From the IMG/VR virus record IMGVR_UViG_3300044910_000908, positions 17,068 to 81,067 of that record: DNA of 64,000 nucleotides; one strand, written 5' to 3'. The position numbers were made by a program, and so were the translations under genes. Position 1 is the stretch's first letter. Each line of letters starts with the position of its first letter. Source of the DNA: a virus. This document shows, in pieces, positions 26,200 to 62,257 of the stretch. The notes under the pieces were generated by a model, which saw only the letters and a list, made by a program, of their open reading frames with translations, was not told the origin of the DNA and made no database searches.

Positions 26200-27297
26200 T
26201 TAACCTCTTGTATTATTAATAATTCTAATACTATCTACTTCTGAATATCTAATACTTTGGGTAGAATAGTATTGATTAGTTACTACTTCTAGAGACATAG
26301 TTTTATCTTCACGTTGATGGATACGTTGTTCAAGCAAATATAATGGAGACATAAATTCAAATCCAATAATGTAATAATTATGTTGTCTCAAAATAGTAAC
26401 CCATTGTCTTCTAGATTTTGGGCTTAGATTTGTATTGTCAATAATAATATTTTTATTTTGTTTAATAAATTCATTGAATTTTTTTCTAGTATATTCATTG
26501 AATTTTTCTGCATGTTCATTACAATAATTCCAAGCTTGTTTATATAGTTCTTTTATATTTGTTGTATGTTCTGGAAATATGTTAGAATAATATTCAATTC
26601 TATAATTATCAAAACTAAAGATAACAGTATTAGCATCTTGCATTAATTTTTCAGAAACTGTGCTTTTTCCAGAACCAGAAGGACCAACCAAAATATAAGC
26701 AGTTAGACCTGAATTATGTTTTTGATCTTGTTCTTGGAGATATAGAGTTTCATTAACCCAATTAGTAACAAATGGAATTTTACTATCTTCAGTAATTCTC
26801 CCACCAGCATCTGATAATAGAACATCAGCAAACATTTGAAGATTTCCAGTCAATGCTCTTGTACTATCAATTCTAAAATCATTATAACATTTTCTACCAT
26901 AAGGCAAATGATTTTCAATCATCCATCTTACTTGACGAATTTGCAAATCAGTTAAACCAAAATTGTTATTAGATAATACATAATCTTCAAATATTCTAGC
27001 AGATACTAGTTCATGTCCAGCATATGATTTATGCTGACCACGTTTTTCTGTAAATTTTTCTACTTCACATTTTGGTTTACCAACATCATGAAATAGAAGA
27101 GCCAATTGAGAAAGTAGTCTTTCATTTTCACTTCTATTTAGAAAGAAGTGTTCTTTATAAAAACGAAGTGTCATTTGTGTATGGACGGCAGTATTTTCTT
27201 CTCTATGATAAGGAGAATTTTCCTGAGTCATGAGCATGTGATGCCAGTATGATGTTTTAGTAAAGTTATGATAGATGTCTTCAAATTGTGTAGTCAT
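26200..27297 (-). CDS. HD-Pnk: HD-domain phosphoesterase fused to polynucleotide kinase
   Basis: 365 aa in two domains. HD domain (about 1-185): metal ligands H39, H70-D71 (FHDVGKP), H95, H130 (ENHLP) and an Asp near 163 (LLSDAGGR). Kinase domain (about 198-350): P-loop GPSGSGKST (205-213), FSFDNYR with the substrate-binding Asp, IIIDNTNLSPKSRR and a lid-like QRIHQRED. This matches the HD-Pnk architecture described from Runella, where the HD part removes 2',3'-cyclic phosphates and the kinase phosphorylates 5'-OH ends, that is, RNA end healing. An RNA ligase at 59895-60533 could then seal. A direct link to the insertion-bearing tRNAs is an inference. Confidence 0.85.
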   Translation of the reverse strand: MTTQFEDIYHNFTKTSYWHHMLMTQENSPYHREENTAVHTQMTLRFYKEHFFLNRSENERLLSQLALLFHDVGKPKCEVEKFTEKRGQHKSYAGHELVSARIFEDYVLSNNNFGLTDLQIRQVRWMIENHLPYGRKCYNDFRIDSTRALTGNLQMFADVLLSDAGGRITEDSKIPFVTNWVNETLYLQEQDQKHNSGLTAYILVGPSGSGKSTVSEKLMQDANTVIFSFDNYRIEYYSNIFPEHTTNIKELYKQAWNYCNEHAEKFNEYTRKKFNEFIKQNKNIIIDNTNLSPKSRRQWVTILRQHNYYIIGFEFMSPLYLLEQRIHQREDKTMSLEVVTNQYYSTQSIRYSEVDSIRIINNTRG

Positions 27298-49455: not shown

Positions 49456-49559
49456 TGGAGCTCGAGAGAGGATTTGAACCTCCGACCGGCTGATTGTTCA
49501 ATACTCTCTTTAGAAAGCATTCAACAAATCAGCTGCTCTACCAACTGAGCTACTCGAGC
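49456..49559 (-). tRNA. tRNA (Thr-UGU or Val-UAC) with a 28-nt insertion in the anticodon loop
   Basis: 104 nt against the usual 76. Acceptor GCTCGAG / CTCGAGC, U73, encoded CCA, intact D arm (GCTC AGTTGGTA GAGC), anticodon stem GCTGA / TCAGC, variable loop CGGTC, T arm GGAGG TTCAAAT CCTCT. The anticodon loop is 35 nt instead of 7, the excess being a 9-bp hairpin (AATGCTTTC / GAGAGTATT, loop TAAA). Removing 28 nt gives a normal loop: TTTGTAA (Thr, UGU) or TTTACAA (Val, UAC), depending on the join. A late promoter element lies 10 bp upstream. Confidence 0.8.
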
Positions 49560-54153: not shown

Positions 54154-54284
54154 AAGAATGCTCTGCTGACACGGAGGGACTCGAACCCCCAACCCTCTGA
54201 TTAAGTGAAGAACTCTCTATCCATGAAAGTTCTTGGGTCAGTCAGATGCACTGCCATTGTGCTACATGTCAGCAGAGCATTCTT
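54154..54284 (-). repeat. 18-bp inverted repeat extending a tRNA acceptor stem
   Basis: Arms AAGAATGCTCTGCTGACA (54154-54171) and its exact complement (54267-54284). The inner part is the acceptor stem of the tRNA at 54166-54271; the outer 12-13 bp lie beyond the tRNA ends. Confidence 0.8.
54166..54271 (-). tRNA. tRNA-Asn(GUU), with a 34-nt insertion in the anticodon loop
   Basis: Acceptor TGACATG / CGTGTCA, G73 (the Asn discriminator), D arm GCAC AATGGCA GTGC, anticodon stem TCTGA / TCAGA, variable loop GGGTT, T arm GGGGG TTCGAGT CCCTC. No CCA is encoded. The loop is 41 nt instead of 7; the excess is a 10-bp hairpin (AAGAACTTTC / GAGAGTTCTT, loop ATGGATA). Joining CTG to TTAA restores the Asn loop CTGTTAA. 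The related CTTTC/GAGAG arms also occur in the tRNA at 49456. The acceptor stem is extended by an 18-bp inverted repeat. Confidence 0.8.
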
Positions 54285-59431: not shown

Positions 59432-59905
59432 TTATTTCTCCCATAAGTTTTTCCACCATTGATTAGTTTCAACATTTAAAGTTGCTTGATGTTGTATTTG
59501 AAAATCAAACCAAAAATCTTTAATTCTACAACAATCTTCTAATGATAATCTATTATGATCTATCATATCATGAAATAACCAACAATGTTTAAATACATTT
59601 AATTCTTCAGGATTTATACCAATCTCATTATGAATACATTCTCCACCAATATATCCTAAACCATTTGAAAGATATTGTGTTGAACAATACAAAATAATAT
59701 CATCTTCTTTATGTTCTTCTACATCATTCTCGTTAATTAATCCATAAATTTTTACAGATAATTCAAAATCATCCAAAGGATTATCATTATCATTTAATTG
59801 ATTTAATAATTGTGATTTATAAAATTCAAAAACTTTAACAATAGTTTGTTCTATTTTTATTAATCTTTCGTTTAAAGTTTCTAAATACTTATAATCAATT
59901 GTCAT
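59432..59905 (-). CDS. Unknown protein, 157 aa
   Basis: Helical, acidic; HKEDDIILYCSTQYL and FKHCWLFHDMIDHN. RBS TTAGGTTAAAAA. It overlaps the RNA ligase gene by 11 bp, so it may be functionally linked. Confidence 0.6.
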   Translation of the reverse strand: MTIDYKYLETLNERLIKIEQTIVKVFEFYKSQLLNQLNDNDNPLDDFELSVKIYGLINENDVEEHKEDDIILYCSTQYLSNGLGYIGGECIHNEIGINPEELNVFKHCWLFHDMIDHNRLSLEDCCRIKDFWFDFQIQHQATLNVETNQWWKNLWEK

Positions 59906-60533
59906 TTTTTAACCTATTAGGTATTATTGGTTTATTCATCCAATGATCGTCTGTGACAACGTGGTTCTTTCTAACATATTTGGCAACACTATGTTTAAAT
60001 GCTGATATATGAAAAATATCTTTTAATCTAATTACAAATCCTTCTTGTTTTTCAAAATTCATTGTATTAATTAATTCATTTATAATATCTTCATTATACA
60101 TTCCATCATATAATACTGGAACTGTTGTTAATCCTAAGTTTCTACATTCTTCAACAGTATCATCCCAATGACAACATAAATCATTAGAATACGTTGAAAA
60201 TACTTCAAAATAAGAAGTTAAATTATCGTAAGGAATACTGTGTTGAGCATAAAGATTTTCACCACAAAATCTTAAACTTTCATGAACTTGATATGCAATT
60301 AAAGGAACAACATTGCCTTTAATCCAATTTCGAGAAGGATGATTATTACTATCAATAGAACGAGCGTGAAGATAACCATCAGCATAAATCGTGGTATTTT
60401 CGCCATCTCGTTTTTCAGAAATGATAATATGTTTATTTTTAAAATGGTCCATATTCCTCAGAACTTTATCATCTGATGTAGCACCAGGTGATTGAGGAAT
60501 ATGGAATGTTCTTTGATATTTAATTCTGTCCAT
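59895..60533 (-). CDS. RNA ligase, Rnl2/Rnl5-like
   Basis: 212 aa. RTFHIPQSPGATSDD at the N-terminus, motif I K41-RDGE (SEKRDGENTTIY), motif III-type GENLYAQHS (91-99) and YFEVFS (108-113), motif IV EGFVIR (164-169), motif V KYVRKN (185-190). All nucleotidyltransferase motifs are present. It joins RNA ends via AMP transfer. Together with the HD-Pnk at 26200-27297 it makes a complete RNA heal-and-seal set. It overlaps the next gene's region and is followed by a 157-aa partner. Confidence 0.88.
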   Translation of the reverse strand: MDRIKYQRTFHIPQSPGATSDDKVLRNMDHFKNKHIIISEKRDGENTTIYADGYLHARSIDSNNHPSRNWIKGNVVPLIAYQVHESLRFCGENLYAQHSIPYDNLTSYFEVFSTYSNDLCCHWDDTVEECRNLGLTTVPVLYDGMYNEDIINELINTMNFEKQEGFVIRLKDIFHISAFKHSVAKYVRKNHVVTDDHWMNKPIIPNRLKNDN

Positions 60534-60982
60534 TACAAACTTTTCAACAAATTTTCAGGTTTAACCATTTCTTTATTGATATAAAAATGGCCGTGGGAAA
60601 ATACAACTTTTTTATCATTTACTTCAAGCATAATTCCACGATTTTTAAAAGGAATATGCTTTGTATTCAAGACATCTTTCAAAGATTTCAAATCAGTGAA
60701 TGATAATTTTTTAGAAGAATCACCTCTTCTTTTACCAGAAGAAACTTCTTCATGTTCTCCATTTTTACGCATTTCTTTTAATTCTTTATTAAGAGCAATT
60801 AATTTTTCATCCATCGCTCTATGGGTTTCTTTAACAAGTTTATAAGTTGAAATTGCTACTTCATCATTTGGATTATCTTTTTTATATGCTCTAGCAACTT
60901 CTAATTCTTTATTAACAACTAGTTTTTGTTTAGCAAATTCTGCTTTTGCTGCCAATTTTTCTTTGTATGTTTGAGTTTTCAT
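60533..60982 (-). CDS. Basic coiled-coil protein, 149 aa
   Basis: Start at MKTQTYKEKLAAKA behind GGAGAATTAAG. Coiled coil (about 5-80, LAAKAEFAKQKLVVNKELE) with a basic linker (SSGKRRGDSSKK) and a C-terminal beta-rich domain (RGIMLEVNDKKVVFSHGHFYI). Possibly nucleic acid binding. It abuts the RNA ligase gene by 1 bp. Confidence 0.6.
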   Translation of the reverse strand: MKTQTYKEKLAAKAEFAKQKLVVNKELEVARAYKKDNPNDEVAISTYKLVKETHRAMDEKLIALNKELKEMRKNGEHEEVSSGKRRGDSSKKLSFTDLKSLKDVLNTKHIPFKNRGIMLEVNDKKVVFSHGHFYINKEMVKPENLLKSL

Positions 60983-61044
60983 CTTAATTCTCCAATTCAT
61001 CTTTTTGAGGGGTTTTTAATTCAGTATTTTCTGAACTTGGATAT

Positions 61045-61072
61045 ATAATATACTATCTATCGGAAAAGTAAA
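61045..61072 (-). promoter_or_regulatory. Early promoter, RNA ligase unit
   Basis: TTTACT, 16-bp spacer, TATTAT reading leftward. Confidence 0.6.
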
Positions 61073-61110
61073 CAATTATTTTCAAAAAAGTGTTAATTAC
61101 TTAACAAAAT

Positions 61111-61184
61111 TGGAGCAGATTGTGAGAATCAAACTCACTTCTCTTGGGCGGAAACCAAGGGCACAATCAATATACCAAATCTGC
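61111..61184 (-). tRNA. tRNA-Gly(UCC)
   Basis: 74 nt with encoded CCA: acceptor GCAGATT / AATCTGC, U73; anticodon stem CTTGG / CCAAG, loop TTTCCGC with anticodon TCC; T arm GTGAG TTTGATT CTCAC. D loop is short (ATTGATT) and lacks the usual GG, a small oddity. No insertion here. Confidence 0.85.
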
Positions 61185-61215
61185 ATATTTAAAATTAATT
61201 GTAGCATATTTTTAC

Positions 61216-61223
61216 TATTTATA
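61216..61223 (-). promoter_or_regulatory. Late promoter TATAAATA between the tRNA half and tRNA-Gly
   Basis: Exact element on the minus strand, 31 bp upstream of tRNA-Gly and abutting the tRNA 5'-half. Confidence 0.5.
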
Positions 61224-61261
61224 AATGAATCTCGGCGCTCTACCAATTGAGCTACACCTGC
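61224..61261 (-). pseudogene. 5' half of a tRNA, ending in the anticodon loop
   Basis: GCAGGTG (acceptor), TA, D arm GCTC AATTGGTA GAGC, G, anticodon stem 5' side CCGAG, then loop ATTCATT (CAT would be a Met-type anticodon). No 3' side follows: the next bases are the late promoter. No matching 3' half (needing CTCGG and CACCTGC) was found in the window. May be a broken tRNA or one half of a split tRNA. Confidence 0.6.
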
Positions 61262-62180: not shown

Positions 62181-62257
62181 TGGTACTACCGGTCAGAGTC
62201 GAACTGACACTGTCTGGAATCTAAATCCAGTGCCTCTGCCAATTGGGCTACGGTAGC
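62181..62257 (-). tRNA. tRNA with anticodon UAG (Leu-type) but class I body
   Basis: 77 nt with encoded CCA: acceptor GCTACCG / CGGTAGT, A73, D arm GCCC AATTGGCA GAGGC, anticodon stem CTGGA / TCCAG with loop TTTAGAT (TAG), variable loop ACAGT, T arm GTCAG TTCGACT CTGAC. Bacterial tRNA-Leu normally has a long variable arm, so a short-variable-arm body with this anticodon is odd. Confidence 0.8.

What the first reader, a model, noticed from the sequence alone, without database searches (positions are those of the whole stretch)
61224..61261. tRNA 5' half that ends in the anticodon loop and meets a late promoter
The half runs cleanly from acceptor to the anticodon loop (ATTCATT), exactly where the other two tRNAs have insertions, and then becomes TATAAATA. 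It may be a broken gene, or one half of a split tRNA whose 3' half lies outside the window.
Basis: partly seen in the sequence, partly recalled or inferred. Interest (0 to 1): 0.6.

Follow-up and report, generated by a model that had tools for sequence, protein, structure and literature searches.

The report
Orphan tRNA half, probably a remnant
A phage genome carries the first half of a transfer-RNA gene that stops in the anticodon loop with no matching second half in the available sequence, so it is most likely a broken leftover, although checking it led to genuinely strange interrupted, nested and rearranged tRNA genes in other phages.

Summary
On the minus strand, 61261-61231 is a clean tRNA 5' half (acceptor, D-arm, 5' strand of the anticodon stem), followed by ATTCATT and AT-rich DNA. 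No 3' partner exists in the 81,067-base record, but relatives are 160-178 kb, so about half the genome is probably unseen. The tail does not fold. TATAAATA is not enriched, so the late promoter is unsupported. About 40 nt downstream lies an intact tRNA-Gly(UCC). Lone tRNA halves beside intact tRNAs recur in other phages. A decayed remnant is the best reading (about 0.8); a split tRNA is possible but unsupported (about 0.06).

The surroundings are more interesting than the half. Two other tRNAs of this phage, Thr(UGU) and probably Asn(GUU), carry 28- and 34-nt hairpin inserts in the anticodon loop, and the phage encodes an RNA ligase and a kinase-like end-healing candidate. In other IMG/VR phages I found complete tRNAs or CCA-ended minihelices nested in the anticodon loop of a second tRNA. 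In 12 of 111 pattern matches, excision would leave exactly a 7-nt loop; in bacterial and archaeal genomes, 0 of 124. Some phages also have circularly permuted tRNA-like genes. No RNA evidence was available.

The parts
61231..61261 (-). tRNA 5' half, positions 1-31: acceptor 5' strand GCAGGTG, TA, D-arm, position 26, anticodon-stem 5' strand CCGAG
   Evidence: sequence; D-arm core not expected by chance; aligns to annotated phage tRNAs
61224..61230 (-). ATTCATT, where the anticodon loop would lie; reads UCA at 34-36 if uninterrupted, identity not determinable
   Evidence: sequence
61185..61223 (-). AT-rich spacer between the half and tRNA-Gly with TATAAATA and an extended -10-like site (TTTATA-16-TACAAT, preceded by TG)
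   Evidence: half plus spacer folds no better than shuffles (z 0.49)
61111..61184 (-). intact tRNA-Gly, anticodon UCC
   Evidence: ARAGORN, Rfam 48.0 bits
49459..49559 (-). tRNA-Thr(UGU) with a 28-nt hairpin insert, most likely between positions 36 and 37 (49523-49496)
   Evidence: Rfam 59.5 bits; fold z -6.14; tRNAs without the insert but with the loop TTTGTAA in L122 and L123; best isolate match is a tRNA-Thr of Cronobacter phage CR9
54166..54271 (-). tRNA with a 34-nt hairpin insert, probably tRNA-Asn(GUU) (insert about 54238-54205); flanks extend the acceptor helix to about 18 bp (54282-54155)
   Evidence: Rfam 54.2 bits; folds; Asn assignment inferred from U1-A72, G73 and the CTG+TTAA register
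62181..62257 (-). intact tRNA-Leu(UAG)
   Evidence: ARAGORN, Rfam
59895..60533 (-). RNA ligase, 212 aa, with the nucleotidyltransferase motif EKRDG
   Evidence: PF09414 E 7.3e-24; PHROG RNA ligase E 9.5e-63; sequence
26200..27297 (-). end-healing candidate, 365 aa: weak N-terminal HD match plus C-terminal polynucleotide-kinase-like P-loop domain
   Evidence: PF13671 E 4.7e-19; HD E 0.0012, below cut-off; PHROG polynucleotide kinase E 4.8e-19; weak match to T4 polynucleotide kinase in PDB

Best explanation
The element is a remnant of a tRNA gene. A deletion or recombination event removed or replaced the sequence from the anticodon loop onwards, leaving a non-functional 5' half beside an intact tRNA-Gly(UCC) gene in an accessory region of a T4-superfamily phage. 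Shown: the 5' half, the absence of a partner in the record, the lack of structure in its tail. Inferred: the loss event and the lack of function. One specific route is that tRNA-Gly had been inserted into the outer tRNA's anticodon loop, as seen intact in another phage (L100), and the outer 3' half was then lost.
For: No 3' half by exact pattern, canonical T-arm scan or permissive scan, whose best score does not exceed shuffles. The half plus tail folds no better than shuffles (z 0.49), whereas the insert-bearing tRNA at 49 kb folds with z -6.14. Orphan 5' halves that end near the anticodon arm and run directly into another tRNA gene occur in other phage loci: L109:3138, L055:1887 (-), L067:3252 (-), L231:12354. 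The reciprocal arrangement, a tRNA 3' end followed by a second T-arm with no detected outer 5' half, makes up 71 of 111 viral and 62 of 124 bacterial/archaeal pattern matches. The neighbouring gene at 60533-61000 has no relative in IMG/VR, nor has the gene next to the 49-kb tRNA, as expected of an accessory region. Partial tRNA genes left by integration of elements are documented in prokaryotes (PMC9897764).
Against: The surviving half is unusually clean: acceptor strand, D-arm and anticodon-stem strand show no visible decay, so the loss is recent or the half is kept. It ends where other tRNAs of the same phage carry inserts. The phage encodes an RNA ligase and a kinase-like protein that could serve split or interrupted tRNAs. 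About half of the genome is probably not in the record.
Confidence: 0.8

Rival explanations
1. 5' exon of a split tRNA: the 3' half lies in the unsequenced part of the genome, and the two RNAs are joined in trans by the phage's end-healing and ligase proteins.
For: RNA ligase at 59895-60533 and HD/kinase protein at 26200-27297. Separated 3' and 5' tRNA halves that look functional (7/7 acceptor complementarity, sometimes encoded CCA) exist as permuted genes in other phages. Record incomplete (relatives 160-178 kb).
Against: No orphan 3' half among the T-arms of the 81 kb. The tail of the half has no stable structure and no partner sequence to pair with. The anticodon cannot be assigned.
Confidence: 0.06
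2. Decayed nested tRNA: tRNA-Gly(UCC) once sat inside the anticodon loop of the outer tRNA and the outer 3' half was lost. This is a specific case of the remnant reading, so its probability is contained in that of the best explanation.
For: In L100 a complete tRNA-Gly(UCC) is nested in the anticodon loop of a tRNA-Asn. 12 of 111 viral matches to a nested-tRNA pattern leave exactly a 7-nt loop, against 0 of 124 in cellular genomes. The half is followed by tRNA-Gly(UCC) on the same strand.
Against: A 39-nt spacer separates the half from tRNA-Gly, whereas most nested units start directly at the exon end (two have a roughly 30-nt spacer: L062, L276). No trace of a 3' half follows tRNA-Gly.
Confidence: 0.12
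3. Functional short RNA: a stable tRNA half or decoy acting on host tRNA enzymes or nucleases.
For: Intact D-arm and acceptor strand; a promoter-like site lies nearby.
Against: No fold beyond chance, no copy with the same 25-base start in 12 phage records searched, no own promoter or terminator shown.
Confidence: 0.02
4. Assembly chimera in a metagenome contig that joined a tRNA half to foreign sequence.
For: Single metagenomic contig; tRNA sequences are repeat-like and can cause misjoins (general knowledge; not tested).
Against: Gene direction and AT-rich composition continue without a break across the site.
Confidence: 0.03

Closest known systems
Partial tRNA genes left by integration of genetic elements in prokaryotes (PMC9897764)
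   Same: one half of a tRNA gene without its partner, next to other elements
   Different: here in a T4-superfamily phage, with no integrase or attachment repeat identified
Split tRNA genes of archaea such as Nanoarchaeum (from general knowledge)
   Same: a 5' half ending in the anticodon loop
   Different: no 3' half found and no complementary joining sequences
T4 tRNA repair: polynucleotide kinase and RNA ligase mend anticodon-loop breaks made by PrrC (discussed in PMC10264068)
   Same: the phage has a ligase and a kinase-like protein
   Different: the ligase belongs to PF09414, not the T4 Rnl1 family PF09511, and the kinase protein has an HD-like N-terminus, as in bacterial HD-Pnk (from memory, not tested)

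Membership tests
tRNA gene remnant | only one part of the cloverleaf present, no partner | tested here: met
   limited to the 81-kb record
tRNA gene remnant | no transcript or function | not testable with these tools
   needs RNA from infected cells
split (trans-spliced) tRNA | separate 3' half with complementary acceptor and anticodon-stem strands | tested here: inconclusive
   not found in the record, but about half of the genome is probably missing
split (trans-spliced) tRNA | complementary sequences or bulge-helix-bulge at the junction | tested here: inconclusive
   tail unstructured alone (z 0.49); no partner to pair it with
circularly permuted tRNA | 3' half directly upstream of the 5' half | tested here: not met
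   no 3' half upstream of 61261
nested tRNA | complete outer tRNA on both sides of the inner one | tested here: not met
   no outer 3' half after tRNA-Gly
T4-type late promoter TATAAATA | motif enriched over chance in the record | tested here: not met
   12 and 6 copies against 15.7 and 13.1 expected; placement before late genes was not tested
intron-containing tRNA (for 49459-49559 and 54166-54271) | removing the insert restores a canonical tRNA with a 7-nt anticodon loop | tested here: met
   Rfam alignments, folds, counterparts without insert for Thr
intron-containing tRNA (for 49459-49559 and 54166-54271) | the insert is excised and the exons joined in RNA | not testable with these tools
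   needs RNA from infected cells
group I intron (for the same two tRNAs) | catalytic core, normally more than 200 nt | tested here: not met
   inserts are 28 and 34 nt; Rfam reports only tRNA
archaeal BHB intron (for the same two tRNAs) | two 3-nt bulges separated by a 4-bp helix | tested here: not met
   predicted folds show a continuous or symmetric-loop hairpin

The most novel reading that the evidence does not exclude
The half is the 5' exon of a truly split phage tRNA whose 3' half lies in the missing half of the genome, joined in trans by the phage's own end-healing and RNA ligase proteins, in a phage that also splices short hairpin inserts out of two other tRNAs.
Probability: 0.05. Interest if true: 0.85.

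Novelty: new member of a known kind. Interest (0 to 1): 0.33.

Why it matters
As a remnant the half only shows turnover of phage tRNA genes. Its context matters more. Phages carry tRNA genes interrupted by hairpins, by complete tRNAs or in permuted order, and many of the sequences would become canonical tRNAs after excision and joining. If that happens, phages would run tRNA splicing in bacteria, perhaps cutting with ordinary tRNA-end processing enzymes and joining with phage RNA ligases, which would give these ligases a role beyond repair. This is directly testable by RNA sequencing of infected cells.

Tried and rejected
Recoded genetic code: opening TGA or TAG barely changes coding coverage (0.752 to 0.764 or 0.769) or gene lengths, so no need for a UCA suppressor was seen. 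tRNA-Gly 3' end as partner of the half: 6/7 acceptor pairs, but it belongs to an intact tRNA and its score is within the shuffled range. Repeats at the break: no repeat of the junction; the repeats found elsewhere in the segment are promoter-like sequences and tRNA D-arms. Other phages with the same inserts in tRNA-Thr or tRNA-Asn: two IMG/VR scans with strict patterns found none. Rfam families for the inserts in other phages: none. RNA ligase PF09414 as a marker of nested tRNAs: over the cut-off in 6 of 12 records with nested genes and 5 of 12 without, so no support; T4-type ligase PF09511 in 1 of 12 and 2 of 12. A first version of the permuted-gene scan returned nothing because of a fault in my D-arm pattern and was redone. 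Literature: no report of short introns, nested or permuted tRNAs in phages was seen in the open library, which lacks most subscription journals.

Full report
What is there. On the minus strand of the window, 61261 to 61231 is a tRNA 5' half: acceptor strand GCAGGTG, TA, D-arm GCTC-AATTGGTA-GAGC, G26 and anticodon-stem strand CCGAG, followed by ATTCATT and TATAAATA. The D-arm core is not expected by chance in this sequence, and the stretch aligns to annotated tRNAs of many phages, in some to about position 34-35. Standard tRNA finders do not report it because nothing follows it. About forty nucleotides downstream of the half begins an intact tRNA-Gly(UCC).

Is there a 3' half? The window is the end part of an 81,067-base linear virus record. 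I took the remaining 17 kb and searched the whole record. There is no exact CTCGG...CACCTGC partner (the one hit is the reverse complement of the half itself). The only convincing T-arms recovered belong to the complete tRNAs. A permissive structural scan gives a best score of 21 against 19-21 in Markov-shuffled genomes. The record is probably incomplete: its inositol phosphate synthase gene is 65% identical to that of Stenotrophomonas phages of about 160 kb, and the nearest long IMG/VR relative, 83% identical in that protein, is 178 kb with 43 tRNA matches.

The promoter. TATAAATA is not enriched in this 27.7% GC record (12 and 6 copies, 15.7 and 13.1 expected). A sigma-70-like site with an extended -10 lies between the half and tRNA-Gly, but such sites are no more common than in shuffles. 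A repeated sequence with GTTTACTTTT found at several places in the record looks like a T4-type early promoter (recalled consensus, not tested formally).

How common are lone halves? In tRNA-bearing phage loci that I had fetched for other reasons, 5' halves that stop in or near the anticodon arm and run into another tRNA are found at L109:3138, L055:1887, L067:3252 and L231:12354. The sample is biased, because many loci were chosen by a pattern that brings a D-arm and a T-arm close together. A tRNA 3' end followed by a second T-arm without a detected outer 5' half is common in both phages (71 of 111 matches) and cellular genomes (62 of 124). A broken tRNA half next to an intact tRNA is therefore ordinary, and partial tRNA genes are documented elsewhere (PMC9897764).

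The other two tRNAs. The tRNA at 49559-49459 becomes a canonical tRNA-Thr(UGU) when 28 nt are removed after position 36; phage tRNAs without the insert have a similar stem and the loop TTTGTAA, and the best isolate match is a tRNA-Thr. Its insert extends the anticodon stem into one long hairpin (z -6.14 for the whole, -7.01 for the arm). The tRNA at 54271-54166 fits tRNA-Asn(GUU) when 34 nt are removed, judged from U1-A72, G73 and the register CTG+TTAA; other registers are possible. Its flanks extend the acceptor stem to about 18 bp. Two IMG/VR scans found no other phage with inserts at these places in these tRNAs. The phage encodes an RNA ligase of PF09414 near the half and a protein with a polynucleotide-kinase-like domain and a weak HD match. 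Together these could heal and seal RNA breaks; that they act on these tRNAs is inference.

What the comparison uncovered. Searching IMG/VR for tRNAs with 45-75 nt between D-arm and T-arm gave at least 120 stretches, many of them genuine tRNA bodies with inserts in the anticodon arm. One recurrent insert lies between positions 29 and 30 and has a variable hairpin followed by ACAGCAA. Relatives of it in cultured phages are annotated as undetermined or pseudo tRNA (Synechococcus phage B23, Aeromonas phage Ahp1_CNU-2021). A scan for a 3' half directly upstream of a 5' half found 9 of 71 adjacent orphan pairs with full acceptor complementarity (G-U allowed), some with encoded CCA: circularly permuted tRNA-like genes.

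The clearest case is nesting. In L100 a complete tRNA-Gly(UCC), from its first base to its CCA, sits in the anticodon loop of a tRNA-Asn, and taking it out leaves exactly CTGTTAA. A pattern scan for this layout gave 12 of 111 viral matches with a paired anticodon stem and exactly 7 loop bases left, with anticodons such as GUU, UGU, UAU, UUG, UUU and UCU; the same analysis of matches in GTDB genomes gave 0 of 124. A simple mechanism, inferred only, is that RNase P and the 3'-end nuclease that mature the inner tRNA also free the outer exons with joinable ends. RNA ligase families did not separate nested from other phages, so the joining step is unsupported.

Conclusion. The half is best explained as a remnant (0.8), possibly of a nested arrangement with tRNA-Gly (0.12 as the specific route). 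A split tRNA is not excluded (about 0.06) because about half of the genome is missing and because permuted and interrupted tRNA genes do exist in phages. Interest is set for the half and its immediate context; the nested tRNAs deserve a study of their own.

Noticed in passing
L100:2123-2272; also L239:5316, L241:13478(-), L242:3330, L248:7447(-), L250:11057, L251:8073, L258:1359, L277:3363(-), L282:4498 and 5134, L337:4097(-), L051:4219: Nested tRNAs in phages: a complete tRNA or a CCA-ended minihelix lies inside the anticodon loop of another tRNA in exact register, so that its excision leaves a canonical 7-nt loop. 12 of 111 viral pattern matches against 0 of 124 in bacterial and archaeal genomes.
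   Followed up: partly
L233:1860-2330 (G001), L051:6188-6213, L142:5907-5934(-), L103:6055-6077, L069:1214-1239, L107, L128: Circularly permuted tRNA-like genes in phages: 3' half followed by 5' half with 7/7 complementary acceptor strands (G-U allowed), sometimes with encoded CCA; apparently several in a row in G001.
   Followed up: partly
L046, L108, L111, L120, L133, L144, L159 and others; Synechococcus phage B23 MN695335 220408-220517; Aeromonas phage Ahp1_CNU-2021 11731-11844: Recurrent short insert between tRNA positions 29 and 30 with a variable hairpin and the motif ACAGCAA, in IMG/VR phages and isolates, annotated as undetermined or pseudo tRNA; no Rfam family.
   Followed up: partly
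L063, L116, L142, L146, L151, L084: Another recurrent insert in phage tRNA anticodon arms with a core like CATGGTGAAGGACC.
   Followed up: no
L085, L096, L122, L130: A third recurrent insert with the motif GTTCCTA in the anticodon arm.
   Followed up: no
window 49459-49559 and 54166-54271: tRNA-Thr(UGU) and probable tRNA-Asn(GUU) with 28- and 34-nt hairpin inserts in the anticodon loop; the second also has an acceptor helix extended to about 18 bp by its flanks.
   Followed up: yes
window 26200-27297 and 59895-60533: Candidate RNA end-healing protein (HD-like plus kinase) and RNA ligase of PF09414 in the same phage.
   Followed up: partly
L012, L013, L015: Phages sharing the RNA ligase carry tRNAs with anticodon CUA, probably amber suppressors.
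   Followed up: no
window 61045-61090 and several other places in the record: Repeated GTTTACTTTT-type sequences, some upstream of genes, like T4 early promoters.
   Followed up: no
L024/L029 (G005, 167 kb): Strange AT-rich tRNA-like genes with a roughly 27-nt anticodon-loop insertion and a shared AGCCAAAAAAGC sequence.
   Followed up: no
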